Below are positions 4,794 to 61,956 of a stretch of DNA of 64,000 nt, piece after piece. The position numbers and the translations under genes are program-made. The stretch comes from Capitulum mitella. Taxonomy: Eukaryota; Arthropoda; Thecostraca; Pollicipedomorpha; Pollicipedidae. How positions within the stretch are numbered: the stretch's first letter is position 1; the number at the start of each line of letters is the position of its first letter. The notes under the pieces were generated by a model, which saw only the letters and a program-made list of their open reading frames with translations, did no database searches and was not told where the DNA came from. Location of the stretch: assembly GCA_030062745.1 (NCBI GenBank), contig CP099839.1, forward strand, positions 35,683,293-35,747,292, in the 5' to 3' direction.

Positions 4794-5662
4794 ACCGTGC
4801 AGTCACGGCGGACAGGATAAGTGCTGTCAAGTAAGGAACGCCAAATCCGTCAGTCCGCTATTTTATCACGTGACTTCTTGCCATCCTTAAATCGCACTAT
4901 AGTTCCCTATGGCCATAAAAGTTACTACTGTTTTTCTCAATGACAACCAGTGCTTTGTTCCATCTGTTACATTCTTTCAATGTCATGACTTTGAAGCCCG
5001 TTCATACATTTCGTAACACGCTACGCCATTTTACTTTTTTGAAAGACGGTCCTTTTTTCCAGTCCTCGGGTGACACCAAGCTAAAAAAATACACAAGCTA
5101 TAAAAAGGACGCATCGCAAGTACGCAACGTTTCATGTCTTGCGTCGCTCCGTTTTTTCTTCTCTTTTTTATCTTCACAAAAATGGAGAGTTCTCATGGTC
5201 CCCAGCCCCCCAAGGATTAAAAAACAGCTTCACAAATGAGCCAGTGCCCCACAATTAGTGCAGAGAAGACTGAAGTACATTTTTAATGTATGATTTTAGT
5301 TTCCCCTCCGAGGTAGGGACAAAAAGCCCGATGTTGTGCACGAGACGGCTCCCAAGGTACAAATTAATATAACGGAAGTTTGAAGCAGGCCATTGGAAAA
5401 TAACCAGCTGACAGGCGAAAACTGATACACCTTTCCAGGAAAAACTATGATCAAATATTAGGGAACTCAGATTTCTAGCAGCATCTCTGGCAAACCTGGA
5501 AAAACGGCATATCTAAAGAAAAGAAAGTTTCAACTCATCTAGACAGCGAGGACAGTTTCAAGATGCTAAAAACAAGACGACAGGTCAAGCAAACCCAGAC
5601 GGAAGAGAAAGGAGTGGAACCACAGTACCTCAATGGAGAGTATCCGTGATGCGGCAGGTAGC
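3940..5662. other. No gene recognised
   Basis: Apart from the TA microsatellite nothing is seen. Confidence 0.5.
4710..4785. repeat. (TA)n microsatellite
   Basis: About 38 TA units with one interruption. Confidence 0.95.
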
Positions 5663-5666
5663 TTAA

Positions 5667-6867
5667 CTGTATTCCCGGAGGGCTAGACGGTACGGCCGAT
5701 TCCCGGCGGGGGGGGGGCGGATTCGGCCCCCTCTGAGATCTCGAGAACCACACATCCGATTTTATCACAACAAACGGCGATTGATTCATGACGTTAACTG
5801 CATTTTTATAAAAAAAAATCAACTTTTTCTGGGGGGGCGTGGATACAGGGGGCAAAAAATTCAAAATGGGGAATATTTTTGGACTTCTTATAACTCCGTT
5901 GTTTATGGACCGATTTTGATGACACTGGCATGAATTGAGAAATTATGGATGGAGCTTTTACCACTGGTACAAACATTTGAAATTTTGAGAAAATTCATAG
6001 GCGTTCACAGGGTTTCGAAAACAGGACTAGTTTTTCAACAAATGAATGAGCAAAAAGATTAACAGCACTATTTTGGCTTCGGCTGGCAATGTTGTGCTGA
6101 AGAAGTATAAATTGTATTACAATGTTTGTATAGTGCTAACATAGCCGGTGCCAGGGACATGAAAAAGGGGAAATGCCATGGTTACCTGTTTATAAGACCA
6201 ACTTATGAGCTATGACCTTATATGACCTCCAGTGACCTAAGAGTCATTTGGAATGATCTCGAGTGCATTTAATATCTGAAAACGTTTCCAATCATCTAAA
6301 TCCGCTTTATTTTTGAAATTCCATTTTACGGCTGTTGTGATATAGGGTAAGCGCACCGGCATTTTACGTCATAGCTCCGTGACCCGCCCTGATATCAGGC
6401 TGAAACTCGGTACACAAGTAGAGGGCACCTTTCTACGTCATACATATTCCGGGTTTGGCATTTGAAAGAAAAGGCGCTAAAATTATTAATATAAAACCAA
6501 ATTCTGACTTATGACCTTAACCGGACCTTGTAAAGTGACCTCAGATGTACAAAATTGCATTTGTATGTTGCCCAACTATTTAGCTATACATCCACATAAA
6601 GTTTTAGGTTCTATCTTAAACACGCCATTTTTGGCAGCCATTTTCTTTTACCCTCAACATGGCCAAAAATGGCCTGAGGTAGCTGCCAAAAACGTTGCCT
6701 GGCTCTGTCCCTGAGCAAAACAGAATTACGAAATTCTGTCACAGTACATAGACAGAAAAGGTAGGAAAAGTGACCAAGTTTCGTAAAACTTCGTCAAAAG
6801 CCCTGGAACTGGCAGGCAAAAAAGGCCTGAGGAGAGCGGATTCAGCCATCCCCCTGCCAAGATAGGG
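5667..6867 (+). mobile_element. TTAA element copy 1 (piggyBac-like, non-autonomous, 1.2 kb)
   Basis: The element is flanked on both sides by TTAA (5663-5666 and 6868-6871). It starts CTGTATTCCCGG and ends CCAAGATAGGG, degraded forms of the family's inverted ends (consensus TTAACCCTATTCCCGG and its complement). TTAA duplication and CCCT termini are the hallmark of piggyBac elements. There is no transposase frame. The interior carries GAGATCTCGAGAAC near the left end and several TGACCT half-sites in the middle. Confidence 0.75.
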
Positions 6868-6871
6868 TTAA

Positions 6872-8530
6872 GAAAGGACAGGTCCCGTCAACCGAAACAA
6901 GCAGGCTCTGGGGCACCCGGAGAGAAAGGGAAGTCCCTGGGGACCAGAACAGAGAGCAGCCGACAGTACAAGTCCTGCTGGGAGGGAAAGCGAACAGCCT
7001 AAATATACCAGTCCTGAAAGGGCAGCTTCCGGGTGCCAGGAGAGACAGCAGCTCCACTGCACCGGTACAAGAGCGGCTACAGCGCTTCCGGGCTGAGAGC
7101 TAACTCGGCACGGGCCGGCCGTGGCGTACCTGGACAGAGGCGGCACCTCCAGCGGAAATCGGCAGCAGCCGGCGCGGCCGGAGGAGCTCTGCTCGCTCAT
7201 CAGAGGCCGGCCGGCCAGCGCCGTTCGTCCGATCTCCGGCACCCGACGACAGCCACTGGCGCCTGCCGCCCGGCACACATCGACCATAACCTTATCCCGT
7301 ACACGATAACAAAACGGCCGGCGAATCGATGGCGCCTCCCCCGCCGGCGCTCGCCGTCGGCCCGGCGCGGCCCGGCCGGCCGCGGCAGCCCGCCAGACAG
7401 AGGACACGGAGGGACGGGACGGACAGCTCAGGCCACCGAGACACCGGCGAATAAGCCGCCGCACAGCACTCTCAGCCGACTCGTCACGTCAATCATCGTC
7501 AGCAGTCCGCGGCCGACCAGGCTTCGGCCAGCTGTGTCATCTGGGGCTACACCAGCTGGGTCAGCCGCGACAAATCATCTGGGTCATCCAAGGTCAAACT
7601 GCGTGGGACGAGACCAGGCCAGCTGTGTAAGACGGGGTCAGACGAGACCTGGCCAGCTGTGTAAGACGGGGTCAGACGAGGCCAGGCCAGCTGTGTAACA
7701 CAGGGCCAGACGAGACCTGGCCAGCTGTGTAAGACGGGGCCAGACGAGACCTGGCCAGCTGCGTAAGACGGGGTCAGACGAGACCAGGCCAGCTGTGTAA
7801 CACAGGGCCAGACGAGACCTGGCCAGCTGTGTAAGACGGGGCCAGACGAGACCTGGCCAGCTGTGTAAGACGGGGTCAGACGAGACCAGACCAGCTGTGT
7901 AAGACGGGGCCAGACGAGACCTGGCCAGCTGTGTAAGACGGGGTCAGACGAGACCTGGCCAGCTGTGTAAGACGGGGTCAGACGAGCTATGACAGAGAGG
8001 GTTGGACCAGATGAGTCAGCCGGCGTCAGACCGCTACGTCAGAGGGTTCAGACAACTGGGTCAGAGGGCTCCGAGCACCGTGCCAGTCTGAGCCTCGGCC
8101 TTGCCCTCCGTCTCGGGTCAGGTCCACGCCACCTTGTCCCTCCCCCGCTCCGCTCCCGCAGGGCTCTGTCGCTCCGTTTTGGCCACGCCGACGGACTGCT
8201 GAGTGGACCGGGGCCTGCCGTGTCGGCGGCCGGCCAGGGTCGAGCGGCCATTATGCCCTGCGACAGAGCGCCGGCTCCGACGGCAGCTCGGCTGCCGGTG
8301 CCGCTCCGTCCTGGCCGGCCGCAATGGCGCCGGGAGCTGAACTCCATGCAGAGCTGGACAATGTCCCTCCGGTTCAGCGCGTCCCTGTCATGCAGGACAC
8401 GCGGCCACTCTCAAGCGAATAGTGCGTCACATTGTTCGCATGGCCGATCAGACGTACAGGCGGGACTGAGTAGCATCAATACGCACAGGTATCTTCAAAT
8501 GGAGAACAGCAGTCATCAATGCGTCATTCA
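6872..8530. other. GC-rich region around the 34-bp minisatellite
   Basis: Very GC- and CpG-rich sequence with frames up to about 220 codons open on both strands. These frames are low-complexity (Arg, Pro, Ala, Ser) and one runs into the minisatellite, so I do not call a gene. No splice pattern was recognised. Confidence 0.5.
7617..7986. repeat. 34-bp minisatellite, about 11 units
   Basis: The unit begins GGCCAGCTGTGTAAGACGGG and ends GTCAGACGAGACCT, repeated with few changes. Degenerate units precede it from about 7530. There are no spacers, so it is not a CRISPR array. Confidence 0.95.
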
Positions 8531-10440: not shown

Positions 10441-10679
10441 GCTCAGAAAACGCCACTGACCGGCTTCGGCCACATCACACTACAGCCCTGGACCGAGTGA
10501 ATGCTAGTGAGTGGTGTGGTACATGCAGTGCTGACGCGGCTGCCGAACCGTTCCATTTTCAGGGGCACGACAGACTTGACGGAACCAAGGTAAACGTCCT
10601 GCCAGACACTGGATGTGTACACTGCACCCAAACGTGCGAATGCTGGCGTGTGTCTGTATTAATCACAGCCATCCGTTAA

Positions 10680-11207
10680 CCCTATTCCCGGAGGGCTAAA
10701 CGGTATAGTCGATTTCTGGCGGGGGGGGGGGGCGATTCCTCCTCCTCCCGAGATCTCGAGAACTAGGCATCCGATTTCATCGAGACAAAAGGTAATCAAT
10801 TCGCCATGACGTAAACGACATTATTACGAAACAGAGCTTCCAAAATCTTGAAATGGATGGATGTAGGGGGCGGGGCAGAAAATTCAAAATGGGGATGTTT
10901 TTGGACGCGTCATAATTCCACTGTTGACGGATCGATTCTGAGGCAACTGGCATGAATCCAGAGCCGATGGAGAGAATTTCTGCCACTGGGCCACCCATCT
11001 GGAATTTTCAGAAAATTCAGACGTTCACAAGGTTTCGAAAATAAACTGAGAACTTGTTTCAACAACTGAGAAAAAACGAAAAGTCAGAAACGCATTTTGA
11101 GCTTTTGCTGGCCATGTTATACTGAAAAAGTATAAATCATATTACACTGTTTGTAAAATGTTAGCACAGGCGACGCCAGGGACATGAAAAGGGGGGAACT
11201 GTCATGG
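10680..11207 (+). mobile_element. TTAA element copy 2 (left half only)
   Basis: It begins TTAA|CCCTATTCCCGGAGGG at 10676 with an intact left terminus. It matches copies 1 and 3 up to about 11200 and then stops at unrelated sequence. The right half and right inverted end are missing, so it is a deletion or truncation derivative. Confidence 0.7.
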
Positions 11208-11949
11208 TTAAATGAGCTCTGTTCACAACGCACAGCTCGCATTTGGCCACCTAGGTAACTAGTGCACCTGATGCCAGGAATGCCATACCGAGAAATGGAG
11301 AGCGATGATACAGCACTTGATTTTTACAGCTGCGTATAGAAAACGATGGGATTATACACCAATTTAGCTCTTTCCGCACAACGAGCACCGAAAATCTTTC
11401 TTTACCTCTTTTCCCGGCAAACCCTGTCTACTTACGTCTCTGCATAATTCCGCTTACCACCCTCGGCGAATTAAGCACGATTCTGATAAGGAACAGCTGA
11501 TTCCCAGGTGAAACTTCCTTTGCATGATAAACCGATGCCGATAGATGCTACAGTGCCCGCTATTAAGGATACACAATGTATTCAAGCACCATAGCTTGAG
11601 GCTATGATCGGTTGAGTTTATCTAAATGATGTTCTTAGCCAATCCTGACAATAGTTTGCGTTCACCACGAGCGCCAAGAAAAGATCTGCTCCTCTGGCGC
11701 AAATCATGGCCAATCTGGAAAAGTTGGAATATTGTATCGTATTTGGAATGTTGCAAGCAAAAATATTAAAGATTCGGCTGGTACGACATTTTCAATAAAT
11801 CTTTTCCAAAGTATGCTTTTTGTCAAACCTTGTATTACAATTTCATTTACTTTCATTCCATTGTACAGCCATATTTGGGAAGAGTCCCGCAGGACCTAAA
11901 ACAACGATCAAATGCTACCTTGGTGGCCAACTTTGTGCGTTGTGAAAAT

Positions 11950-13842
11950 GACTATGTTCATCATGTCAACTCACGACCTTTGACTCCCAATGAACTCACA
12001 GTAGCGTCCAATGACCTTGAGTGCATTTCAGATTGTTTAAAAAAGTTTCAAATCATCTACATTGACTCATTCCTAAATTTCAGTTTAACCCTATTCTCGG
12101 AGGGCTGACGGTATGGTCGATTCCCGGCAGGGGGGGCGGATTCGATCCCTCCCTGAGATCTCGAGAACTACACATCCGATTTCATCGCAACAAACGGCAA
12201 TCGATTTGCATGACGCGAACTACATTTTTATAAAAAGAAATTTTCAAAAATTTTTTAAAAGTGTGGATACAGGGGGCAAAAATTTTAAAATCAGGGGTAA
12301 TTTTGGACTTATTATAACTCCGTTGTTTATGGACCGATTTCGATGAAACTGCCAAGACTCGAGAGATTATGGATAGGACTTTTACCATTGGCACACACAT
12401 CTGAAATTTTGAGAAAATTCATGGGCGTCGTTCACAGGGTTTCAAAAATAGGAGGATTAGTTTTCCAACAACTGAATGAACAAAAACGGCAAAAATACTT
12501 TTTGGGCTTCTGCTAGTCATGGTATGCTAAAGAAGTACAGATCGCATTATAATGTTTATATAGTATAATGTTAGCATAGGCGGTGCCAGGGACATGAAAA
12601 CGGGGGGAACTGTCATGGACACACGTTCTTCAGATCAAATTGTGATCTTTGACCTTAAATGACCTCCAGTGACCTTGGAGTCACTTGGAATGACCTCGTA
12701 TGCATTTAATATTATCTGCAAACGTTTTCAATCATTTGAATTCACTCTGTCCCAAAAATTTCATTTTATGGCTACTGCGATATAGAGTATGCGCACTGAC
12801 ATTTTAAATCATAGCTCCGTGACCCGACCTAATATCAAGCTGAAACTTGATACACAAGTAGTGGGCACCCTCCTACGTCATGTATATTCTGGTTTCGGCA
12901 TTTGAAAAAACGGCGCCGAAATTATTGCAATAAAACCAAATTTTGGCTTTTGACCTTGACCTGACCTTGTAAAGTGACCTCAGATGAACAAAATTACATC
13001 TGCACATTGCCCAATTATTTAGCTATACATCCATATAAAGTTTTAAGTTTTATCTTAAAAACGCTGTTTTTGGCAGACATTTTCCTTTTACCCCCATCAT
13101 GGCCAAAAATGGCCTGAGGTACCTCCCAAAAACGTTGCCTGACTCGCCCCTGAGCAAAAGAGAATTTTGAAATTTTGTCACGGCACGTAGCAAGAATAGC
13201 TAGGAAAAGTCACCATGTTTCGTGAAGCTGGGTTAAAAAACCTGGAACTGGCAAGCAAAAAAACTCGAGAGGGGCGGATTCAGCCCCCACCTTGCCGGGA
13301 ATAGGGTTAAGGCTGTCGTGATATAATGTACGCGCAATGGCACTGGAAGTCATAGCTCCGTGGCCCGACTTGATATCAATCTAAACTCAGTAAACAAGTA
13401 GCGTGCACACTTCTAAGTTACATCCAATCTGGGTGTTGCGTTTGGGAAATTGGCGCTAAATTACTAACATAAAACCAAATTTTGGCTTATGATTTCGACA
13501 TGAACCTAAAAACTGACCCCAGATTAACAAAATTCTTTTTGTGCTTGCGCACTTATTTACCTATACAACCAAATGGAATTTTAAGTTCTACCTTAAAAAT
13601 CCTATTCTTGGCAGCCCTTTCCTGTTACCTTCAACAGGGCCAAAAAATGCTCCGAGATGCCCCCAAAAATGCCGTCTGACTCCGCCCCTGAGAAAATAGG
13701 AATTACGAAATTTTGGTACAATACGTAGAAAGAATACGTAGTACAAGTGATTGTGTTTCGTGAAGCTGCCTCAAAAACCACGGAGCTGGCAAGCAAAAAC
13801 CCGAGGAGAGGCGGATTCCTCCCTCCATAGCCGGGAATAGGG
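11950..13842 (+). mobile_element. TTAA element copy 4 (host copy, interrupted by copy 3)
   Basis: The parts at about 11950-12084 and 13311-13842 are colinear with the middle and right half of the family and become contiguous if copy 3 is removed. The right end CCGGGAATAGGG is intact, but its flanking TTAA has decayed to TTCA. The left third was not found. It is the oldest member in this cluster. Confidence 0.7.
12089..13306 (+). mobile_element. TTAA element copy 3 (complete, nested)
   Basis: A complete 1,218-bp copy has intact inverted ends (CCCTATTCTCGG ... CCGGGAATAGGG) and TTAA on both sides (12085-12088, 13307-13310). The sequence either side of it is itself an older copy of the same family (copy 4), cut exactly at a TTAA. 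It is therefore a later insertion. It contains four TGACC motifs within 60 bp near 12648-12695. Confidence 0.85.
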
Positions 13843-13989
13843 TTCACTACGTGCCAAGAAGTCCCTCAAACAACATTTGCTTTGTGGTCGAGCGCTGTGC
13901 ATAAGCAGATCACCTTACATGTTTAACAGACATGTTTAACATGTTTTATGTTTTATGTTACATGTTTTACAGACATGTTTAACGTTTCA

Positions 13990-15195
13990 CCCTACTCCCG
14001 GCAGGAGGGCTGAGTAAACCTCCCCTCGGGTTTTTTGCTTTCCAATTCCAGGGTTTTTGATGCAACTTCACAAAACCTGGTCATTTTTCCTAGCTATTCT
14101 TTCTACGTCCTGCAACGAAATTTTGTAATTCTTTTCTCTTCGGAGCCAGGCAGGGGCGGAGCCAGGCAACGTTTTTGGGATGCACCTCAGGCCATTTTTG
14201 ATCCTGTTGAGGATAAAAGGAAATCTGCCAAAACAGCGTTTTTAAGATAAAACTTAAAACGTTACATGGATGTATACGCAAATATTTGGCAAAATACGAA
14301 TACAATTTTGCCTATCTGGGTGACTTCACAAGGCCAGGTCAAGGTCAAATGTCAAAATTTGGTTTTGTGGTTATAATTCCGAAGCCATTTTTTCAAACCC
14401 TAAACCCGACAAGTAAATGACGTAGAAGGGAGCCCTCTGCTTGTGCACCAAGTTTCAGCTTGATGTCAGGTTGAGTCACAGAGCTATGACCTAAAATATC
14501 AGTGCGCACACCGTATATCGCAACAGCCGTAAAGCAGAATTTTAGAAATACATTGAATTCAAATGACTGAAAACGTTTCAAATAATATGAAATACGCACA
14601 AGATCATCCCAAGCGACTCTAAGGTCTTTGGAGGTTATTTAAGATCAAAGGTCGTAAGCTGACCTGAAGAACATGTGACCATGGAAGTTCCCTCTTTTCC
14701 ATGTCCCAGGCTCCGCTTATGCTATTATTGTACAAATATTATACGATTTGTACTTCCTCGGCATAACATAACTGGTAGAGGCTAAAAAATGTTTTTAACT
14801 TTCTTCTTAATGCAGTTCTTAAAAAACTTATCCCCGTATTTTCGCAGACTTATGAACGCCTATAAATTTTCCCAAAACTTCATATGTACGGATGAATGGT
14901 AAAATTCCCATTCATAATCTCTCGATTCATACCAATTTCGTAAAAATCGGCCAATAAATAAAGAGATTATAACAAGTCCAAAAATATCCCCATTTTGACT
15001 TTTTTGCCCCCTCCACTGTACCCACCCCTTTCATAATTCTGAAAACTTCTTTTTATAAAGGTGTAATTTACATCATGGCACATCGATTGCCGTTTCTTGC
15101 GATGAAATCGGATGTGCAGTTCTCGAGATCTCAGGGGGGCCGAATCCGCCCCCCTGCCGAGAATCGGCCATACGATCTAGCCCTCCAGGAATATG
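13990..15195 (-). mobile_element. TTAA element copy 5
   Basis: A near full-length copy in reverse orientation. The terminus CCCTACTCCCGG at 13990 follows TTCA. The other end (CCTCCAGGAATATG) is degraded. It carries the family landmarks in reverse order, including GTTCTCGAGATCTC at about 15118. Confidence 0.7.
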
Positions 15196-17133: not shown

Positions 17134-19939
17134 TGTGACATTTCGCATCAGACCGACCACTGAAATAAAACCCAAAAAATAATAGCACCCTCATAGCTCT
17201 GATGCTGATATAAATTTGTCTATGGCGCTATCTGGTACAACGAATCCACCTGCGCAATTTCCAACTGGATTTGGCACACGATTTCAAGTTACAGCCTTGG
17301 GCATTCTTTTTTTTGTAATCACTGGAGATGGTTGTCTTTAACGGCCTGTATCTCCTATAGTAATCCAAGGAATCCATAAGCCATTATGTATCTAAGACTC
17401 GCAATGGCACAAGGATTACTTTCCACATTTCCTGTTTTGCGCGAATTCTGACCCCTTCATCTCGTGGCCTTAGTTTACGTATCTTAACACAAGAGCAGTG
17501 GAAAATTTAATCTTTTCATGTCAAAATGAGCCTTAATAGGTTGTCTTTAACCTACAAATGTGGGAGATTTAATTTTTCTGTGTATTTTAATTAAATCTGT
17601 ATTGCCAAATGGACCATTCCGCAAAATGACGCCTTTGGGAAGAGAGCTGCATTTTGGCACAGTGCTTCTTTCATTTTCGGCCGTGCAGTGCTCAGGTGGT
17701 ATACGGAATGTGCACCTTGGTGTTATGGCTCACTCTTCTTGGGTTTATTGCTTATATTTGACCGTCCCAGTTAGTTCGCGACAGTTATTCTTGGCAGCAT
17801 AGCCACTCACTGCATTCGCTTCGGACGAACATTCGCTCTTTTATTCTTTAAGTGGTGCAAATAATACTCGTCAACAATTAGGGATAGTGCAAGACATTTA
17901 CTCTCACTCAGAGGGTGGGGAAAAAAAAAAAACACGACGAAAATGAGCCGTCTCCCTTTTCCTCTGATGAAGGTACCACTAACGTTTCTCAATAACTCTG
18001 CACATGTGAAAAGTTAGATCAGACCGCAAGTTTTTGTCTGAGTCCTGGTTCGTGGAAATCAACGAGCCCCACAAGATTTTCAGGCGAAATACACCAAATG
18101 AAACTGAAGTTAATATCTGGGGCAAAAATGTAATTCAGATGTGGCATTATCTTTGTTGTTCACTGCACGTCGTCAATACAGTTACAATGAAACTCGCTTA
18201 GTTCTCGCCCGTATAGAGGGCAGGGAGTTGATGCACTCCATCCCTCACTCCGAGGTTTTCCGAGGACAACTTCCGAACGGTTTGTTCGACCCGCCTGAAA
18301 CTTGGTGAACTACTGGGGCATCCTTTCCGCATCTTAGGGTGAAATTTTTCTTTACGTTACCATGGTAACGAGCTATGACGCCATAACGGGAACCATGTCA
18401 GTCGTTTCGCGCGCCGACACGGCCAGTTTACTATGGTCTCAGTTTTGTCTCAATGTAAGACGACTGGAATGCACAAATACAAAAAAATATACATATTAAT
18501 CGACTCCAAACTGCATGTTCTATAAAACTATGCATAGATTTAATAGGCTTATGCTCACTACCGAGATTACCGAGGATTAAAAGTAAGGTCATGGGCATCG
18601 GCGAGAAACACGTTACTTTCTATCTTTAGGAATGCGATGCGAAACAGATACCGCACAACAACCCATATGTCTGGAGTGCTTCAGGTGTGAGGAATTTAAT
18701 GATATAAATTTGGTGCAATTTATCTTTTATTTCATCAAAAGAGGGCGCAATGCAGCGAACGCCTAACTTGCTCCGACGGGCGGAGCGGCGTCGGCCGCGG
18801 AGTGATGAGTCTTCAGTACCACGGCATACCTAAAGTTTGATTCTGTGTTCGATATCAACTCGAAAAGCACTTTTAAGGCCCCTAACTTACGATTTTTCGC
18901 TAATCCGAAGTCATCTGGTCATATCACATCTAATAATTTATAAAAATAAAAATAAAAGGGCTAATCATAGGTTACTGGCTTCAGATAACCTTGGGTGACC
19001 TAGGATGACATTACATGAACCAAGATGACCTTTATATGTTATTCGACAATACTCGTAGTACTTGTGCACTGAGAAGCTACATTTGACTTCAGTATCTATT
19101 ATTCTCTACAAAAATGTTACTATTCAGTGCTATTAAAAATGCTTCAGCATTTATTCTTCTCTAAAAATGCTTCTGCAGCTCCGAGAAGGCATTTAAGCCG
19201 ATGACCCCCGTGACAAGGACTGATCTAGCATGACCTGTGTCGGATCCCATCGATAAAATACAATCATGTGTACAGAAAGACTCATAACTGATTCACGAAC
19301 ACTATGACATCCATTTCGTTTCACCGTCATTTATTCTTTGGCATTAATTTGCGCTTAAGCTCGGAAAAGTACCACTTTCTGCCAATTTTTGAACTTTGAT
19401 CCGGCCTTCGAAGGTCATCCGTTGACCTGACACCTTAAAAAAGGTACCGGTCGGAATTCGTCACGCGTAACACGCCATTTTTCCGCGATACTATAAGACG
19501 CACAATGTGAAAATGGCCGGGGGGTCGTACCAACCCAACCTCCCTAAACGTTCGCGTTATGCAGAGGGCCTTAAACGGACGAAGGTTAAAGTCATTACGG
19601 TGTGTAATGCATTTGCTGTCACGAGGAAGCTGTGCAGGATGCCTCGTCCGGGGATGCAAATATTCTTTTGTCCCTCTGACTTAGACTCGGCAATGGAATA
19701 TGCAGTTTGCGTTACTGCGGTTTACGTATATGCGGTTTAAGTTACGTTATCAGAGTTATCTTGAAACAGAACACTACGCTACACCCATCCTTACGCCAAA
19801 ACATGCATGACCCGACATGAAAGTTACACTGTGGCAAAAAAGAGCTCCTTTCACAACGGTGCCATTTTGAGGGCAGACCCATATGACAGTCCAAATTTAG
19901 TTAAAATATTTGTAGAAAAATTGTTTCCGCCCATTCTCC
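17134..19939. other. No gene recognised
   Basis: 2.8 kb without convincing exons. Scattered TGACCT/AGGTCA motifs occur at 18.98-19.04 kb and 19.40-19.43 kb. The ACTCCGAGGTTTTCCGAGGA segment near 18257 and a related ACCGAGATTACCGAGGA near 18561 hint at an old repeat. Confidence 0.45.
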
Positions 19940-19944
19940 TTAAA

Positions 19945-21178
19945 CCCTATTCCCGGCAGGGGGGCTGAGTCCGCCCTCTTCGGGTTTTTTGCTTGTCAAT
20001 TCCAGGGCTTTTAACGCAGTTTCACGAAACTTGGTGACTTTTCCTAGCAATTTTTTCTACGTAGTGTGACAAAATTTCGCAATTCTTCTTTGTTCAGGGC
20101 CAGGAGGAGCCAGGCAACGTTTCTGGGAGACACCTCAGGCCATTTTTGGCCATGTTGAGGGTAAAAAGGAAAATGACTGCCAAAAATAGCGTTTTTAAGA
20201 TAGAACTTAAAACTTTATATGGATGTATAGGTTAATAGTTGAGCAATATACAAATGTGATTTTGTTTATCTGAGGTCTCTTCACAAGGCCAGGTCAAAGC
20301 CAAAAGTCAAAATTTGGTTTCAACGCAAAAATTTGGGCGTCATTTTTTCAAATGCAAACCCAAACTACATATGACGTAGACAGACGCCCTCTACTTGTGC
20401 ACCAAGTTTTAGCTTTAAAACAGGTCGGGTCACGGAGCTATGATGCAAAATGTCAGGGCGCGGACCCTATGTCACAACAGCAGTAAAATGAAATTTCGGA
20501 AATAGAGTGAATTCATATGACTGGAAACGTTTTCAGATAATACTCAATGCACACGAGATTATTCCACATGATTCTAAGGTCACTAGAGGTCATTTAAGAT
20601 CAAAGGTCGTAAGTTGGTCTGAATAACATGTAACCATGACAGTTCTCCTTGTCCATGTCCCTGACACCGCCTATGCTAACGTTATACAAACATTATAATA
20701 CGATTTGGACTTCTTCAGCATAAGATGACTAGCAGAAGCCGAAAAAAGTGCACTTAATTTTTGTTAATTCAATTTTTGAGAAACTAATCGTCCTGTTTTT
20801 TAAACCATTTGAACGCCTATGAATTTTCCCGGAATTTCAAATTCATGGGCCAAAGATAGAACTCCCATCTATAATCTCTCCATTCATACCAATTTCAATC
20901 AAAACTGGTCCATAAACAACGGAGCTATAACAAGTTCAAAAATATCCCACATTTTGACTTTTTTGCCACCTTTTGTATCCACCCTTTCCCGACTTTTTGT
21001 ATCCACCCCTTCCAAAATTTTGAAAACTTCCTTTTATAAAAATGTAGTTTACGTCATGGCAAATGAATTGCCGTTTACTGCGATGAAATCGGATGCGTAG
21101 TTATCGAGATCTCAGCGGGGGGCCGAATCCGCCCCCCTGCCGGGAATGGGCCATACCGCTAGCCCTTTGGAAATAGGA
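19945..21178 (-). mobile_element. TTAA element copy 6
   Basis: A reverse-orientation copy starting CCCTATTCCCGG next to TTAA (19940-19943) and ending near AAATAGGATTA. About 1.23 kb, no coding capacity. One end has an extra A between TTAA and CCC, so that boundary has mutated. Confidence 0.7.
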
Positions 21179-21795
21179 TTACGGGTTAAAGACCACTCAA
21201 TAAGGGTCATTTTGGAACGAAAAGAAAATTACAATGTTTACTGCCCTCGTGTCAAACTAGGTCATATGGACTAAGGCCACGAAGCCAGGAGATAAAAATA
21301 TGTACAAAACAAAAATAAAATAAGGAAAACAGTCCTTCCACCATTGTGAGTCCTATGATGTACAACTTTGCTGTAAGTCTTGCATTGTTATAGGATGTAC
21401 AGGCCGTTAACCAGCGCCGAACCGGGATGGGGGGTCATTCAGACCCACGGGGTCTTTGGTGATAGCAAGAAAAAACAGCACACGCAGCGCGCTGAAATGT
21501 GCAGTACCTTCCCTTGCATTCCTTGCACATGTCCTGTCCAATTTTTAATTTTCGGTCGCGTCAGGTTACTGACCTGAACCACGTAGAAGAGGCCGGCATC
21601 CGATTTTTTAAGTCTTCTTCAAACCACGCCACGCGATCGATCGAGCTACAACTTTAAAGGATAGCAGTCGACGACATGCCTAAAAATCGTGTTCTATGAA
21701 TTTGCTGTCACGATCACATCAATGATCTACGGTCGGCTAAATTCCCGCACTATTTCACCATTTCTAACGGCTTTGAACCGTTCCTCCAGCTTGAT

Positions 21796-22332: not shown

Positions 22333-22475
22333 TATCCATATGCCCATCATTATCTTTCTAGTCTATTTCATGAGTCAAAGTCAAATCTAGGCATGAAAAG
22401 ATGAAACCCAAGCCTGCGTCAAATGATGTTTCAGATCATGCTCCTACATCAGGCCTGGTGAAATGATCAACTTAA

Positions 22476-23653
22476 CCCTGTTCCCGGGAGAGGGGAACTG
22501 AACTGGCCCCCCCCCCCCGGGTTTTTGCTTGCCAATTCCAGGCTCTTTGACGCAGCTCCACAACACTTCGTGACTTTTCTTAGCTATTCTTCCTACGTGC
22601 TGTGACAAAATTTAGGAATTCTGTTTTGCTCAGGGGCGGAGCCAAGCAACGTTTTTGGGACGCGCCTCAGGCCATTTTTGGCCTTGTTGAGGGTACAAGG
22701 AAAATGTCTGCCAAAAACAGCGTTTTTAAGATAGAACTTAGAACTTTATATGGATTTATAGCAAAATAGTTGGGCAACGTGCGAATGCAATTTTGTTTAT
22801 CTCAGGCCACTTTAAATGGTTAGGTCAAGGTGAAAAGTCAAAATTTGGCTTTAGAGTAGTAATTTTGACGCTATTTTTTCAAATGCCAAACCCAGGACAT
22901 ATATGACGTAGAATGGTGCCCTCTACTTGTGTATCAAGTTTCAGCTTGATATCAGGTCGGGTCACGGAGCTATGACCTAAAACGTCAGTGCGCGTATCCT
23001 ATATCACAATAGCCGTAAAATGGAATTTTTGAAATAGAGTGGATTTAAATGACTGGAAACGTTAACAGGTAATGTTAAATGCACACGAGGTCATTTCAAG
23101 GGATTCCAAGGTCACTGGAGGTCATTTCGGATCAACGGTCACAAGCGGATCTGAAGAGCATGTGACCATGGCAGTTCCCCTTTTTCATGTCCCTGGCACC
23201 GCCTATGCTAACATTAAACAAACAATGTAATACGATTTGTACTTCTTAAGCATAACATGACTAACAAAAGCCAAAAAAGCGTTTTCACTTTTTTTGGACG
23301 TTCAGTTGTTGAAAAACTAGTCCTCCTATTTTCGATAACCTGTGAACGCCTATGATTTTTTTTTAAATTTCAGATGTGTGAACCAATGGCCATAATCTCT
23401 CGATTCATGCCAATTTCACCGAAATCGGTCCATAAACAACGGAGTTATAAGAAGTCCAAAAGTACCCCATTTGGAAAAGACCCTCCTTCCAAAATTTTGA
23501 AAACTTCTTTTTTAAGAGTACAGTTTACGTCATGGAAAATCGACTGCCGTTTGTTCCGATGAAATCGGATGAGTAGTTCTCGAGATCTCGGGGGGGCCGA
23601 ATCCGCCCCCCTGCCGGGAATCGGCCATACCGCGTAGCCATCCGGGAATAGGG
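22476..23653 (-). mobile_element. TTAA element copy 7 (complete)
   Basis: A complete reverse-orientation copy of 1,178 bp with TTAA at both borders (22472-22475, 23654-23657) and good inverted ends (CCCTGTTCCCGG ... CCGGGAATAGGG). A C-run (22507-22519) lies just inside the end. With copy 3 it is the best preserved member. Confidence 0.85.
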
Positions 23654-23657
23654 TTAA

Positions 23658-31241: not shown

Positions 31242-31740
<499 letters not shown>

Positions 31741-31875: not shown

Positions 31876-32270
31876 GGGGTAATTCCATAACATATCACCA
31901 ACGCGGGGTTCGAAAAGTTCACCACTCCACGTCGGATTTCGTTTAAAATTGATGTTTGGAGGTTGTTCCAGGCTCTGATTTCGATTCTGGGATTCAGAAA
32001 GTCGTGAGAGGGAGTAGTCACCACATACAGGTCATTAAACATGTTAGGCCAAGGCCGACGACCCATTACGCACGCCACAGTATCTACATGACCAAAAAAG
32101 TCATCAGGGCAAAATTATATATCGTTAAAAAGAGGAAGAATCAAGGAATGGGTTTCCGCACAAGCTGACCTTCTGAGGTCAAATTTGTAACTCTGACGAC
32201 ATGATACCTATTTAATGTCAAAGTCGAACAAAGTCTGACTGTTTCGATTTCTTTTAAATTCATACAAATT
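31876..32270 (+). repeat. Inverted dispersed repeat, left arm (~400 bp)
   Basis: Diverged reverse complement of about 35125-35549. Shared landmarks include GTAATTCCA, CTGATTTCGAT, AAGAGGAAGAATCA and GTTTCGATTT. Together the arms bracket about 2.85 kb that includes the 17-bp array. Confidence 0.7.
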
Positions 32271-34034
32271 TGCAATGGGAGCTCCATGGCGGGGGGACGG
32301 GGGTCATGTCCTGACCTAATTTGACCCGTATGCTTACTGACCTCGATTTATTCCAAGATGTAAGAAACGTGGATATTACCTGGAAACATTTGTCGTTTGG
32401 AACATATCCATGACATAAATGTTCACCTTTCAGTCTGTTTTCACGTGTTTTACCCCTTGCCTTACTCCCCCAGCACTTCGATGGTGCTGGGGGAGGGACG
32501 GGGGGCAAGAAACCCGTGGTGACTGGTCCCTGAGCTAGAGTCGCGAAACAAAAACAGACGTGTTGCTCGCCATGACAGGAGTCCAATGACATTCAGTTCT
32601 GATCCCCGCCCGACGGGGCCACTTTTAAACCCTCGCCTGGTGGGTGGGGGTCCTAAAACAACCCCCTCCACGAACTTTTGACGCAAAAGATAAAGCAACG
32701 CGGTAAAAACTGGTGCGTTGCTCGTCACGTCAGCAGCTCAACAATATCAGAGCGACGACTCCACGATACGATACCTCCCGGGTCACGGTAATGATCTCAA
32801 AGCGGCCATGCCAAAATTGTCTAAGTTTTCTTAGCAACAGTTTCCAAACTTTTTAAAATAAATCGATTCTGTAAACACCAGCGCGTTGGCCGTTGCCTTA
32901 GCTCTCGGAGAATGTCTGGGGTTTTGGGTTTCGGTCAACAGGTGACCTCCCAGGCCACGAAAATGTCATCATAGCTGCAATTTGCAATGGAAGGCATGAT
33001 GTTCGCATAATTCTTTTGTCAGGTCACAGGGCCAACGTGCGACAACACACGTGTCAAACTTGGTAAACCGGTTCTCCTTGCGCCGGGAGGGGGTCGCCTA
33101 TTTGGGGTTGCGGATGCGGAGCTTAGTTTTAGTTCCCAAGGTCACCGTCAGGGAAGACCATGTCGCATGTCGAAAACCGCTCTTTGTCGAAAACCATTCG
33201 AGCTAGAGCTACCAAACTTGGTGTGCAGGTAGGCGGGCATACGGTCTGTCCGAACATGTCATTGCGGTGGCCGCAATATTTCCTCAGTCAGCGCTAGAAG
33301 TCCAATCGAATTTCGCATTTTCGAGTTTTCGAACATATCCGACCCAGCTTGACCATAATCTACAAAATGGCTTCACGCTACATTAAGCAATCTTCGTCAC
33401 AATAATGTTGATGTGGTCGTAGTAGTATGAAAGTAGATCGTAACAAATATAGGTAACGCTTAACCCGCTTACAAAATTACAATGGCGTGTGGTATCAGTG
33501 TTTGGCACTTTTGACCTAGCCTGACCTCTGATGACCTGATCTTCCCATACACTAAAATCAAGTCACTGACGCTAGCATTTATAAAAGTAACATGCAAAAC
33601 AACAATGCAATACCCAATTCCCAACAAACGAAAAGCATTGTTAGATTCATTTGAAAACACGACTGACATGGCCGTGACATGGTCACAGATTACGACCTAT
33701 TGCATGTAAAATTCTAAAAAATTCACTTAAGACTTGCCAATGTTCGAAACTCAAATACAGCAAAATACAGCGTTCTGTCTTCCGAAGTTGAAACGTTACT
33801 GATGAAAACCAACCGGGCGGTCCTAAAACGACCACCCCCCACCGCCGGGCGCAGCTTAAGGCTACAGGTTAACCGATGATCTCCCAAGTCCGGTCAATGA
33901 CCCGAAATTGGTTAAAATCGCGAAGCGTTTTGTTCGGAGGGTCACAGAACAAAACGTTTTGCAGTTAGAGAATGTTTTACAGTTTTACTGTATATTAATG
34001 TTGGAAAACAGTACACTGGCGAGGGGATTTTAGG
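32271..34034. other. Intronic spacer of the - strand gene, degenerate repeats
   Basis: No exon seen. GTGTTGCTCG at about 32560 and GTGCGTTGCTCG at about 32712 suggest a decayed ~160-bp repeat. A G-rich/C-rich pair at 32.62-32.67 kb and 33.81-33.85 kb shares the GGTCCTAAAAC motif. Confidence 0.35.
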
Positions 34035-34790
34035 GTAAAAGTTCGTATCGCAGAAATTCGCCGGACAAAGTTCGTCGTGCTGAAGTCTGTCGTGTAAAAG
34101 TTACTCTGGGGAAAAAGTTCGTCTAGGACGAAAGTTCACCGTGCAAAAGTTCGTCGTGAAAAGGTTCGTCTAGGGAAAAAGTTCGTCGAGGGTAAAAGTC
34201 TGTCTAGGACAAAAGCTCGTCTTGCAGAAGTTCGTCTACGGAAAAGGTTCGTCTGGGACCAAAATGTTTTTTTCGCAGAAGTTCGTCAAGGACAAAAGTT
34301 CGTATAAGGCAAAAGCTCGTATGTGGCAAAAGTTCGTTTAGGACAAGTTTATTTTGCTACTGGAAAAGGGTCGTACTGCAAAAGATTCGTATGGAAACGG
34401 TTCGTACGAAAAAGGTTCGTAAGGGAAAACGTTCGCAAAGAAAAAGATTCGTAACCAAGGGTTCGCAAACTTAAGGCACGTGTCCGAAAAGATTCGCATC
34501 GGAAAAGGAACGGGCCTAAAATAGTGACCCAACCAAACCTTTTGCACTGGACGAACTTTTGTCCCAGACGAACCTTTGCCCTAAACGAATTTCTGCGAAA
34601 CGAACTTTTGTCCTACACGAACTCTTGTCTTAGACGAGCTTATGCCCTATTCGAACTTTTCTGGACGAGCTTTTGCCCTGGACGAACTTTTGTCCGATAC
34701 GAACTTTAGCGAGAAAAATCTCCGTCCTAGACGAGCTTTTGTCCTGGACGAATTTTTCCCATACGAACTTTCGCAAGACGAACTTTTGAA
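34035..34790. repeat. 17-bp repeat array that reverses direction at its centre
   Basis: From 34035 to about 34510 a degenerate ~17-bp unit, AAAAGTTCGTCTAGGAC, repeats head to tail nearly 28 times. After a ~24-bp centre the same unit continues in reverse complement (GTCCTAGACGAACTTTT) about 15 times to 34790. Any transcript through it would fold into a long imperfect hairpin. It lies within the 5-kb intron of the - strand membrane-protein gene. Confidence 0.85.
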
Positions 34791-35124
34791 CTTAAGTCCA
34801 ATGATGAACGGAAGTCCCATGAGCTTCTGTCTGAAACCGGCGAGGGGCAAAACACATGAGACTATAGAGACAGGTGGGGACTGACATGTCATGCATGTAT
34901 CCCGCGTGACAAACGCTTTGAAATGATACCCATATTGCTCACATGTTGGTATAAATCGAGGCCAGTAAACAAACGGATTAAATCTGGTCATGAAAAATCA
35001 TCCGTTGCCCCCCCCCCTCCTCCTCTTCCAAGGAGCTCCGAACGCACAGAAGAATTTCGTCAGTATGTTACCAACAATGTAATTGAGTAGAATAGAATAG
35101 AATGTAATGAATAGAATGTAACCA

Positions 35125-35549
35125 ATTGAGCGTGTGAATTCAAAACAAATCGAAACTGCCGAAATGTACTGACCTCGACATTCAAAATAGGTCAGAAGGT
35201 CATATTTACAAATTTGGCTTGAGAAGGCCAAATTCTGCGGGAACACATTCAATGATTCTTCCTCTTTCGAATGATATCTCGCTTTGCCCTTACAACTTTT
35301 TTGCCTACGGAGACAGAATGGCATACGTCGTTGGTCGTAGGCATTGAGCTCGCATTATTAATGACCTGTATCTCGCGACTTCTTGACCTCACAACTATAA
35401 ATCCAAAAATCGAAATCAGGGTCCAGAACAATTTTTCAATTTTTGAGAGAAATTTTTAAACAGAGAAAGAGCAATTATTACACCAATTTTGAGGGAAACC
35501 TGACAGAGTGTGGCGAACACGCCCTGGTGATCAGTCCTGGAATTACACT
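35125..35549 (-). repeat. Inverted dispersed repeat, right arm (~420 bp)
   Basis: Partner of 31876-32270 in the opposite orientation. Homology continues across nearly the whole arm with many substitutions, so the pair is old. It could be two copies of a dispersed repeat or the long ends of one ~3.7-kb element. Confidence 0.7.
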
Positions 35550-39396: not shown

Positions 39397-39510
39397 GCAT
39401 GCTGCGCAACATTTGGTCTAGATGAGTAATGAACTACTCATGGTTACCCCATCAGGAGGTTACCGTTCAAAATCCTTGCGGCTCGTTACAAAGAAAAAGG
39501 TGTGTGTGCC
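39397..39510 (+). repeat. Left arm of the 114-bp inverted repeat
   Basis: Exact reverse complement of 40832-40945. The arm runs from GCATGCTGCGCAAC to AAGGTGTGTGTGCC. Confidence 0.9.
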
Positions 39511-40831: not shown

Positions 40832-40945
40832 GGCACACACACCTTTTTCTTTGTAACGAGCCGCAAGGATTTTGAACGGTAACCTCCTGATGGGGTAACC
40901 ATGAGTAGTTCATTACTCATCTAGACCAAATGTTGCGCAGCATGC
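40832..40945 (-). repeat. Right arm of the 114-bp inverted repeat
   Basis: Exact reverse complement of 39397-39510. A G-run (40825-40832) abuts the inner end. Confidence 0.9.
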
Positions 40946-48383: not shown

Positions 48384-49150
48384 CCTCTGAGGTTGAAGTT
48401 ACAGGCCATGAAAGATGACCGATTTTTATGGACATTGAATGATTCAAACACCCATGGCTCGGTGACAGATTGTCACAAAAAGGTGCGATTAGCTCCATTG
48501 GAAAGGGAAATGTACCAGCTTTCATAAATAAGTCCACTTTTTCGGTGACCTGGGTGACCTTTGACCTGAGTAGGTCGCAGAAGATTGTACGGTTTTTCTC
48601 TGCTTCACCACAGTGATTTGCGCGAAAATAAAGCACAGTATGTCCCCAAGTATTTGCAATAAGCATTCCAAAAAAAGTCCCGGCCAGATTTAAACTTTTC
48701 AGATATGTTGACATAAGTGCTGTCGAGTGGCGCTTGAGAAGTATGCCTTACGGGTATTTGACGAATATTGCTTGATTTCCTGTTTTTCGTTTGCCCGATT
48801 GTTTTACAATTTGGTGTGCGCAATGTCATGCGTGCCTTTTACGTATCAATTTAGTCTTAAATTGCTTGACCAAAAAGGCCAAAGCTTATGACATTCTACT
48901 ACCAGTCGATCGCTACCGTCCAGATGTGATACGCCCGCTGTCACATTTCCACAAAAGTGAGTCTGTCGTGTGTTCTTAGACCCCAAAGCCAACTGAGATA
49001 ATCCCAGTCGTGCATCGGAAGCGTTGAAAGGACAACCGAGACTACCGACGTCAGTTGACCCTGTATTGCCCGTTTTGATCTCGGGTCATTTATCGGTTGT
49101 CGGGGACTGATTTCGAATTTTATATCCATTTTGCACGTTTTGAGTGGATA
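48384..49150 (+). repeat. Inverted repeat pair, left arm (~765 bp)
   Basis: The reverse complement of this arm aligns with about 49350-50105. Landmarks on the complement are TCAAGCAATTTAAGAC, GGCAAACGAAAA, AGCAATATTCGTC, ATCTGAAAAGTT and GCAAATACTTGGGG. The - strand is open for 167 codons within it, but no domain was recognised. Confidence 0.65.
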
Positions 49151-49349: not shown

Positions 49350-50105
49350 AAACTGTATATGAAGTTCGGAATCAGTGCCCTAGAAAAGCTATTAATGGCC
49401 CGTGGTTAACAGGTTATCCAAAGTCAGTCGGGATCAGTGACTTCAGTGGCTTTCAGAAGGCCCCGATTCGTGTATAAGATTGTTTCAGTTAGCTTAAAGG
49501 ACTAAGAACACCAGTTAAACTCGTTTCCGTGGAAATATGAGGAACGGATATGTCTGATCGGGATGGTAGGGATTGACTCATGGCGCGATGTTATAACCTT
49601 TGACCTTTCTGGTCAAGCAGTTTACAACGAAGCTGATGAGAAGCTGGCTCGCAGGACATTGTACACCAATTGTAGCAAAATCTGACAAACGAAAAGTGCG
49701 AAGTCGAGCAATATTCGTCATATAACCCCAGGGTATATGTCCACTTGGCAGCACTAAAGCCAAGGTATCTGAAAAGTTGCAGTTTGCCCAGAAATGTTTT
49801 TTTCTCTGCAACGTTTATTGCAGATACTTGGGGGCATGTTGTACTCCATTTTCGGGAAGATCACGGTGGGCAAACATGGTTAAAAAAATGTTCCATATGA
49901 CGTAGTCAGATCAAAGGTCATCCTGAGGTCACCAAAAAAATGAACTGATCTAAGAAAGCGGGAACATTTCTCTTTCGAATAGCTCTGATCGTACTTTTTT
50001 GTGACAATCTGTCACTGAATTATGGACATATGAATCATGCAATGTCAGTAAAAAATCGGTGGTGTTTCATGACCTGTAACTTTGATCTCAGAGGTCTTCA
50101 GGGCA
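49350..50105 (-). repeat. Inverted repeat pair, right arm (~755 bp)
   Basis: Partner of 48384-49150, about 200 bp away, in opposite orientation. The order of landmarks (GGTCAAGCAG, GACAAACGAAAA, AGCAATATTCGTC, ATCTGAAAAGTT, GCAGATACTTGGGG) is preserved, with moderate divergence. Confidence 0.65.
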
Positions 50106-58636: not shown

Positions 58637-59335
58637 CCCTATTCCCTACCCATAACGCCAGGGCGCATTCCCATATGACGGGGGAGGGGTATGCCCCCCC
58701 CCCCTCTCCCGAGATCTCGAGAGATACTGGACCGATTTCATCGTAAGAAATGGCAATCGATTCGCCATGACATCAGTACATTTTGAAAAAAAGATTTCAA
58801 AAACTGAAAAGGGACGGATAAAGAGGGCAAAAGACTGAAAAGGGTATATTTGACTTCTTAGAACTCCGATGTTTATGGACCGATTTTGACGCAGTCGGCA
58901 TGAATCAAGAGCCAGTCGATGGAACTTTCCCTTTGGTCCATGCGTCTAAGATTTTGAGAACATTCATTGGCGTTTACAGGGCTTGGAAAATGGGAGGACT
59001 AAAAAAATGAACTAGCGGGAGTCAAAGACCTTTTGGCTTTTATTAGATATGTGACGTATTTTACTGTTATAGATTATATATTTTATGTTTTATAGATACG
59101 TGTTTTAGGTTTTATAGATACGTGTTTCATGTTTTATAGATATTGTTTTATAGATACGTATTTTATATTTTATGGATATAGCTTTTATTATAGATATGTT
59201 CAAAAGTAGAAAACATATTAAATGGTTTTTATAATGCTGGCATCGGCGGAGCCAAGGACTTGAAAAAGGGGAACTATTATGGTTGCAAGTTGATCAGGTC
59301 GATTTACGACCTTGCGATTTCATAAATGACAACGA
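58637..59335 (+). mobile_element. COA7: TTAA element copy 8 (right side lost, in the COA7 intron)
   Basis: A left-terminus-like CCCTATTCCC is followed by the family landmarks (GAGATCTCGAGAG, then the TTTATGGACCGATTTTGA region). It then diverges after about 59330 with no right end. Between 59043 and 59205 it carries an internal expansion of a TTTTATAGATACGTG-type repeat absent from other copies. Confidence 0.6.
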
Positions 59336-60620: not shown

Positions 60621-61360
60621 TTTACACTGGAAAACAGCAATTGTGGCATTTCTTGCATCAAGGAACTTTCCTCACTTTGTCCTCGTTCTTCATGGGCGGC
60701 TCCTTGCCTTCTGACGTGAAGAATCCAAACAAAACACCGACACCGTCCATTCCAACCCGTCGCCCCGATGTATGTGGCGCTGATCCAGTCGCCGATCATC
60801 CTACGTCAGTTGTTTACGCGGGTGGCCGCTAGAGGGGCCACTATCGAGTGAAATGGCGAATAACTACAAGCAGTAAACATTAATAGAATAACGAAATTGG
60901 AATGGAAATTGGTTGATTGTGCGGGTATTGCATCAGTCTTAAAAGTTCCAATGTTTGGACTGCTCTTCAGCTCACAGTATTTTACCCATTACTCCGAAGG
61001 AATGTGTTGCATCTTATAAGCCGTCAAGGATATCAGTCCCTTCTATGGCCTTTCACATGGGAAAGTTTCCGCTTGATTTCCGTCGTTTCCGAAGTGTTCT
61101 CCTGCGAATTTATTTCTTCAAACATGCAAAAGGAAACACTGCTCGGACACATGTTTACGTGTTTTGTCTGGAGAATGAATTTTGAAAATGCATTGTTTTT
61201 TGACCGGGTAAAAACGACTGAAAACGTATTGCCATTACTCCGTATTTGCTGTCAAATAGTTATTCGTAGCTGCTCAAAAATGAGGTGAAATGTATTCCCC
61301 ATGAGGGATAATTTCGCTTCGCCGCTATCACACTCATGTTATGTATGTACGACGTTTCAG

Positions 61361-61956
61361 GTTGCCACTTGCTAGCGGATTACTTCGAAGGCATCAAAAA
61401 AGACTTTGAACGAGCTGCCAAAGTGTACAAGAGCACCTGTGATGACTACGGCTTAACCAAGAGCTGTCACAAATACGCCAGCTACGCATTCCTGGGCAAA
61501 GGCTGCCGTCAGAACCCGCCGGAGGCGCTGCAGTACTACACTCGCGGCTGCGAGGGCGGCGAGATGCAGTCGTGCCTGAATGCTGGGCTGATGCACCTGT
61601 CGGGCGCCACCACCAACGGCGAGGTCAAAGACGTGCCGCTGGCGATGAAGCTGATCGAGCAGAGCTGCTCGGGCGACAACCCGACCGGCTGCTACTACCT
61701 GTCCGGCCTGTACATCACCGGCGTCAAGGGGCACCACGACAAGGACATGGAAACTGCTTTCAAGCACGCGCTCAAAGCCTGCGAACTCGGCAACATGTAC
61801 GCCTGCTCTAACGTCAGCCAGATGTACCGCAAGGGCGACGGCGTGGAGAAGGATGAGAAGCGAGGGGCTGAGTTTAAACAGCGCGCGGCCGACATGCAAG
61901 AACAGGTCAAGAAGAGCGCGCGCATCGGTTTCCAGCAAGGCACGGCGCCTTCGTGA
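61361..61956 (+). CDS. COA7: COA7 coding exon 2, to the stop codon
   Basis: Second and last coding exon, opening after the acceptor GACGTTTCAG (61351-61360). The single base from exon 1 plus GT makes Ser34, and the protein continues CHLLADYFEGIKKDF to a TGA at 61954-61956. It carries residues 35-231: Sel1-like helix-turn-helix repeats with paired cysteines at 26/35, 60/69, 97/105, 136/144 and 174/182, each pair separated by 7-8 residues, plus a lone Cys82. In this family such pairs form disulfides after import through the MIA40 pathway, and no cleavable presequence is expected or seen. The C-terminal repeat MYRKGDGVEKDE is the most conserved stretch. The exon is GC- and CpG-rich with G/C-ending codons, unlike exon 1 and the surrounding introns. 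The identification is firm; the function is transferred from the family. Confidence 0.95.

What the first reader, a model, noticed from the sequence alone, without database searches (positions are those of the whole stretch)
34035..34790. Convergent 17-bp repeat array forming a giant potential hairpin
About 28 units of AAAAGTTCGTCTAGGAC in one direction meet about 15 units in the opposite direction across a 24-bp centre. Ordinary minisatellites do not flip. This needs an inversion within the array or growth by a foldback mechanism. Because it lies in an intron of the - strand gene, transcription would yield long double-stranded RNA, a possible source of siRNA or an RNA-editing target.
Basis: partly seen in the sequence, partly recalled or inferred. 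Interest (0 to 1): 0.75.

Follow-up and report, generated by a model that had tools for sequence, protein, structure and literature searches.

The report
Old foldback-type jumping DNA element
The convergent repeat array is one old copy of a jumping DNA element that occurs in many places in this large genome, a type whose ends are built from short tandem repeats facing each other, so it is a new family of a known kind rather than a local flip or an assembly error.

Summary
The array is real: 25 forward and 16 reverse unit cores. It is not a minisatellite that flipped here. It is one copy of a dispersed, non-autonomous foldback-type DNA transposon, 812 bp at 34027-34838, flanked by an exact 9-bp direct repeat, GGCGAGGGG (34018-34026, 34839-34847), found nowhere else in 64 kb on either strand. 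In the same genome 40 places were scored (of 929 candidates); all 40 match through both arms and the centre, the other 39 at 71-78% identity, and all 40 are convergent by unit count. The copies share sharp ends. Of 40, 20 carry a direct repeat at the ends, against 19 of 1560 mismatched pairings. The element sits in an older dispersed repeat; four spanning alignments from three paralogous loci are uninterrupted at the insertion point. Units match by position between copies (0.775 against 0.58), so the array was already diversified before it dispersed. No transposase partner was found. Closest published relative seen: Tm1 (Mutator/Foldback, PMC3169594). The RNA would fold strongly, but dsRNA or siRNA function and the intron claim are unsupported.

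The parts
34027..34838 (+). Foldback-type non-autonomous DNA transposon, 812 bp (first base may be 34026 if the family's leading G is counted)
   Evidence: family edges from 40 copies, flanking 9-bp repeat, paralogous empty sites
34018..34026 (.). Left copy of the target-site duplication GGCGAGGGG
   Evidence: only two occurrences in 64 kb, none on the other strand; 7 of 200000 random edge pairs do as well
34839..34847 (.). Right copy of the target-site duplication GGCGAGGGG
34027..34357 (+). Left arm: tandem units of mostly 14-17 bp read forward; the part 34067-34315 pairs with the right arm
34358..34505 (+). Inner block of 15-16-bp variant units (GGAAAAGGTTCGTA type), forward only, part of the middle domain
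   Evidence: TRF rows at 34358-34453, periods 15-16; spacing list
34506..34533 (.). Centre; in the majority sequence of the family this is a short AACCT run, here decayed
34534..34838 (-). Right arm: tandem units read in reverse, down to the family end ...GAAAACC
31877..32598 (+). Left arm of the older dispersed long-inverted-repeat element that hosts the insertion
33856..34017 (+). Part of the same host element left of the insertion point (33856-33972 and 33999-34017 align to paralogues)
34848..35453 (-). Right arm of the host element

Best explanation
It is a non-autonomous foldback-type (FB-like) DNA transposon. Its two inverted arms are tandem arrays of units of about 15-17 bp, and its ends read (G)ATTTTAGGGC on the left and, on the opposite strand, GGTTTTCGGGC on the right (family majority). 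A transposase made elsewhere cut and pasted it into an older repeat and made a staggered break that duplicated 9 bp. Shown: common ends, flanking duplication, uninterrupted paralogous sites, dispersal. Inferred: the transposase and the cut-and-paste step. The tandem units most likely serve as repeated transposase-binding sites (inferred from the Galileo work, PMC3688188). The 9-bp duplication and composite ends point to the Mutator/Foldback superfamily (about 0.6; not shown). The copies look like one old burst from one master (inferred from divergence).
For: All 40 scored places (of 929 candidates) match through both arms and the centre, the other 39 at 71-78%; 40 of 40 have mainly forward units left and reverse units right of one switch point. 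Conservation drops sharply at common ends. Perfect direct repeats of at least 9 bp at the ends in 9 of 40 copies against 0 of 1560 mismatched pairings; score 6 or more in 20 of 40 against 19 of 1560. The end motif with up to 1 mismatch occurs 284 + 271 times in the genome, reversed control 0 + 1. Four alignments that span the insertion point, from 3 of 4 paralogous loci fetched, are uninterrupted there. Units match by position: 0.775 at the same position, 0.582 at different positions. Median identity to the majority sequence 0.883 and median pairwise identity 0.784 fit a star-like burst.
Against: No autonomous partner found: 6 MULE-domain hits have no unit arrays within about 5 kb, and only scattered 12-base end-like matches with up to 2 mismatches. 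Of 9 inward-facing pairs of exact ends (my pairing), 8 are 658-1829 bp; the one of 4.6 kb is long because another element is nested in it. Half of the 40 copies show no clear duplication, partly because about eleven copies have an end misplaced by the alignment. The window copy's own ends were set by hand with the repeat in view. In the paralogous sites only 7-19 columns align left of the 9-mer (6 of 7, 14 of 19, 13 of 19, 6 of 7 identical), and three of the four differ from the 9-mer by 1-3 bases.
Confidence: 0.94

Rival explanations
1. A minisatellite at this locus that acquired an internal inversion or grew by foldback replication.
For: The units are tandem and the orientation flips once.
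Against: The same flip in all 40 copies examined; target duplication and uninterrupted paralogous sites; units match by position between loci, not within an array.
Confidence: 0.02
2. An assembly artefact that joined two arrays in opposite orientation.
For: None found; raw reads could not be examined.
Against: The same structure at 40 independent places with different flanks.
Confidence: 0.01
3. A foldback-type element moved by a transposase outside the Mutator superfamily (P/Galileo, Merlin or hAT), so that the foldback shape is convergent.
For: Some copies fit an 8-bp duplication as well as 9. Galileo shows that P-type elements can take this shape (PMC3688188, passages seen). No array-flanked MULE gene was found.
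Against: Exact duplications are mostly 9 bp (6 of the 9 longest), within the range of Tm1 (8-10 bp, PMC3169594).
Confidence: 0.3
4. A functional hairpin locus that makes siRNA or is edited, kept by selection.
For: Strong RNA fold, z -9.6.
Against: The fold follows from inverted arms. This copy is 0.849 identical to the majority sequence, below the median of 0.883. Longest perfect arm pair 17 bp. No gene context found in the ORFs tested.
Confidence: 0.04

Closest known systems
Tm1, Mutator/Foldback family of root-knot nematodes (PMC3169594; abstract, passages and part 1 of the Discussion seen)
   Same: Arms made of 13-15-bp tandem units, 8-10-bp target duplications (45 of 53 elements, mostly 9 bp), unequal outermost motifs at the two ends, mostly non-autonomous MITE-like copies
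   Different: Different unit sequence; Tm1 has a member that encodes a MULE (Phantom-type) transposase, none found here
FB (Foldback) elements of Drosophila (recalled, and as cited in PMC3169594)
   Same: Long inverted repeats made of short tandem units
   Different: Unit sequences and sizes (recalled); link to a NOF-type gene not tested
Tetris of Drosophila virilis (PMC4079207; passages seen)
   Same: Non-autonomous, tandem units in the arms, 8-10-bp duplications, no autonomous copy found
   Different: Units of about 220 bp that spread into satellite arrays; here 15-17-bp units held in position
Galileo, P superfamily (PMC3688188; abstract and passages seen)
   Same: Foldback-like arms with tandem repeats, in which transposase THAP-domain binding was shown
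   Different: Arms over 1 kb, P-type transposase; longer units (recalled)

Membership tests
Foldback-type DNA transposon (structural class) | Long inverted arms made of short direct tandem repeats | tested here: met
   for the window copy; 40 of 40 copies convergent
Foldback-type DNA transposon (structural class) | Dispersed copies with common ends | tested here: met
   40 of 40 scored places; sharp edges; 284 + 271 end motifs
Foldback-type DNA transposon (structural class) | Target-site duplication of 8-10 bp | tested here: met
   9 exact bases here; 20 of 40 copies against 19 of 1560 pairings at score 6 or more; single site in paralogues
Mutator (MULE) superfamily | Mobilised by a MULE transposase carried by a member with the same ends | tested here: inconclusive
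   6 PF10551 hits, none with unit arrays within about 5 kb
Mutator (MULE) superfamily | Target duplication typically 9 bp | tested here: met
   some copies also fit 8 bp
P superfamily (Galileo-like) | P-type transposase with THAP domain in the autonomous member | not tested
   no search made
Merlin superfamily | IS1595-type transposase in the autonomous member | not tested
   PF12762 requested; did not complete
Minisatellite or satellite array | Units homogenised within an array | tested here: not met
   identity of different units within a copy 0.583, of the same position between copies 0.775

The most novel reading that the evidence does not exclude
The family is a foldback element driven by a transposase from a superfamily not yet tied to this architecture, in which some 40 short binding units in convergent arrays are read in fixed positional order, so that arm sequence specifies the two ends separately (left end (G)ATTTTA, right end GGTTTTC).
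Probability: 0.1. Interest if true: 0.45.

Novelty: new member of a known kind. Interest (0 to 1): 0.27.

Why it matters
It turns a puzzling flipped minisatellite into a dispersed transposon family with a visible insertion event, and shows that convergent short-unit arrays in raw sequence should first be checked for target duplications and sister copies. Elements of this shape supply inverted repeats that can fold and recombine; Galileo has been tied to chromosome inversions in Drosophila (PMC3688188, abstract).

Tried and rejected
Larger copies as the autonomous partner: one 4.6-kb copy (L066) looked promising, but its inside is a nested element with ends CATAGGTGGGCA...TGCCCACCTATG and its own 8-bp duplication TCCATAAG (read by eye). 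Of the 13 L066 ORFs of at least 80 aa I gave 8 to Pfam; the best match was E 0.11. L068 (1.8 kb) has an unrelated 1.2-kb centre with no inverted repeats of 14 bp or more and no ORF over 147 aa; I did not scan these for domains. MULE loci as partner: no unit arrays around them. The one match in L065 (113 bp) is to a stretch without units that lies inside copy L035, and the one in L060 is 32 bp. The large inverted repeat around the array (31936-32461 with 34018-35453) first looked like outer arms of the same element; it is a separate, older dispersed repeat. The window's own left arm of that repeat is homologous up to the 9-mer only and says nothing about the left side of the site. Rfam: no match at gathering score in the window. 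Literature search for the unit letters: 3 papers, each with one 11-letter match; listing and abstract starts seen, none on this topic. Repbase and Dfam were not available, so 'new family' rests on that search and on the papers named. The species was not identified.

Limits: only 40 of 929 first-look candidates were scored, so copy number is open. About eleven copies besides the window have one end misplaced by the alignment, judged by eye; they were kept in the counts. The window's ends were set by hand; without it the counts are 8 of 39 (9 bp or more) and 19 of 39 (score 6 or more). A first, crude unit chain showed both blocks in only 15 of 40 copies because it broke at gaps over 90 bases; the recount gives 40 of 40.

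Full report
What is there. The array was confirmed directly: 25 forward and 16 reverse unit cores, 41 in all against a shuffle mean of 3.8, TRF arrays on both sides, and arms that pair at 70% over about 250 bp and 78% over 150 bp. The forward arm has an outer part of mostly 14-17-bp units and an inner block of 15-16-bp variants that lies outside the best alignment with the right arm, so the hairpin is asymmetric with a middle domain.

Boundaries. An exact 9-mer, GGCGAGGGG, lies at 34018-34026 and 34839-34847 and nowhere else in 64 kb on either strand. Random edge pairs of similar spacing in the window give such a repeat in 7 of 200000 trials. This sets the element at 34027-34838, 812 bp.

Family. 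The window lies in a genome of 477 Mb in 16 contigs. A search with the array found 929 first-look candidates. The 40 that were scored all match, each covering at least query 109-663 and so both arms and the centre; the 39 other than the window itself are 71-78% identical. I fetched those 39 with flanks. Counting units on either side of the best switch point, 40 of 40 are convergent (17-32 forward units left, 9-24 reverse units right). In the alignment of the 40, agreement rises abruptly from mostly 20-40% to mostly 60-90% at ATTTTAGGGCAAAAG and falls again after CTGCCCGAAAACC. The end motif TTTTMGGGCARAAGTTCGT with up to one mismatch occurs 284 times forward and 271 reverse in the genome, against 0 and 1 for the reversed control.

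Insertion. With the ends fixed (slack of 4 bases), 9 of 40 copies have a perfect direct repeat of at least 9 bp at their ends and 20 of 40 score 6 or more; pairing left and right flanks of different copies gives 0 and 19 of 1560. The window copy, whose ends I set by hand with the repeat in view, is one of the 9. The other 20 copies show no clear repeat; about eleven of the 40 have a misplaced end. At the window locus the flanks belong to an older dispersed long-inverted-repeat element: 175 first-look candidates, 40 places scored and matching, among them the query itself and the window's own left arm, many over part of the query only (internal pairing). Of four paralogous loci fetched, three give four alignments that cross the insertion point, and all four are uninterrupted there. 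One holds GGCGAGGGG exactly once; the others carry it with 1, 2 and 3 differences. The alignments reach only 7-19 columns beyond the 9-mer on the left (39 of 52 columns identical in sum), but hundreds of columns on the right. The fourth locus, L074, gave no spanning alignment. The array therefore arrived by insertion.

History. Units at the same position in different copies are 0.775 identical; units at different positions are 0.582 identical between copies and 0.583 within a copy (25 forward units used). The array was diversified before it dispersed, and the units have not been homogenised since, unlike a satellite. Median identity to the majority sequence is 0.883 and median pairwise identity 0.784, close to the square of the former, as expected for a burst from one master (inference). 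The window copy, at 0.849, is more decayed than the median. CpG sites mismatch at 15.4% against 12.3% elsewhere.

Partner. MULE domains occur six times at E up to 0.001. The 10-kb stretches around them hold no unit arrays, and 12-base end-like matches with up to 2 mismatches are scattered in five of the six, at about the number I would expect by chance (my estimate). Pairing the exact end motifs (72 places; 84 places) by hand gives 9 inward-facing pairs: 8 of 658-1829 bp and one of about 4.6 kb, which is long through a nested element. The transposase stays unknown. Mutator is favoured by the 9-bp duplications and by likeness to Tm1, whose arms hold 13-15-bp tandem units and whose duplications are 8-10 bp in 45 of 53 elements (PMC3169594, passages and part 1 of the Discussion seen). 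The same Discussion notes that foldback-like families carry different classes of transposase, P-type in Galileo and MULE-type in FARE.

Function. [quoted passage not shown] As RNA the minus strand folds at -301.7 kcal/mol, z -9.6 against 20 shuffles, with 287 pairs and a longest helix of 18; the longest perfect arm pair is 17 bp. That shows ability to fold, not function. The claimed intron was not confirmed: of 20 ORFs given to Pfam (of 87 ORFs of at least 100 aa listed), only the plus-strand ORF 61312-61953 matched (Sel1 repeats). Spliced genes with short exons could have been missed.

Verdict. It is a new family of foldback-type transposons, a known kind, with modest interest.

Noticed in passing
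5660-6872, 12082-13312, 13986-15193, 19938-21181, 22471-23657, partly 10676-11214 and 58700-59001: A dispersed repeat of about 1.2 kb with five near-complete copies in the window, 75-82% identical to each other; two lie head to head at about 12085-15193 and make a 3-kb palindrome.
   Followed up: no
39397-39510 and 40832-40945: A perfect 114-bp inverted repeat with 1321 bp between the arms, the only 100% pair among the 25 longest listed; perhaps a young element. No target duplication was obvious by eye.
   Followed up: partly
48384-49003 and 49478-50094: Inverted repeat of about 620 bp, 72% identical, another long-arm element candidate.
   Followed up: no
31877-35453: Older dispersed long-inverted-repeat element that hosts the insertion; at least three genomic places hold it as inverted pairs about 2-3 kb across.
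   Followed up: partly
L066:1108-4778: An element of about 3.7 kb nested in another foldback copy, with 8-bp duplication TCCATAAG and hAT-like ends (classification recalled); its ORF at 1789-2061 resembles a BED finger by eye, but Pfam gave no match.
   Followed up: partly
L068:680-1890: A foldback copy whose centre is replaced by about 1.2 kb of sequence unrelated to the other copies, perhaps captured DNA.
   Followed up: partly
61312-61953: Plus-strand ORF with Sel1 repeats (Pfam E 5.9e-22); the likeness to COA7 is recalled, not tested.
   Followed up: no
7607-7986 and 31255-31738: A homogeneous 34-bp minisatellite (11.2 copies, 92% matches) and a 484-bp GAGA/GACA-type microsatellite.
   Followed up: no
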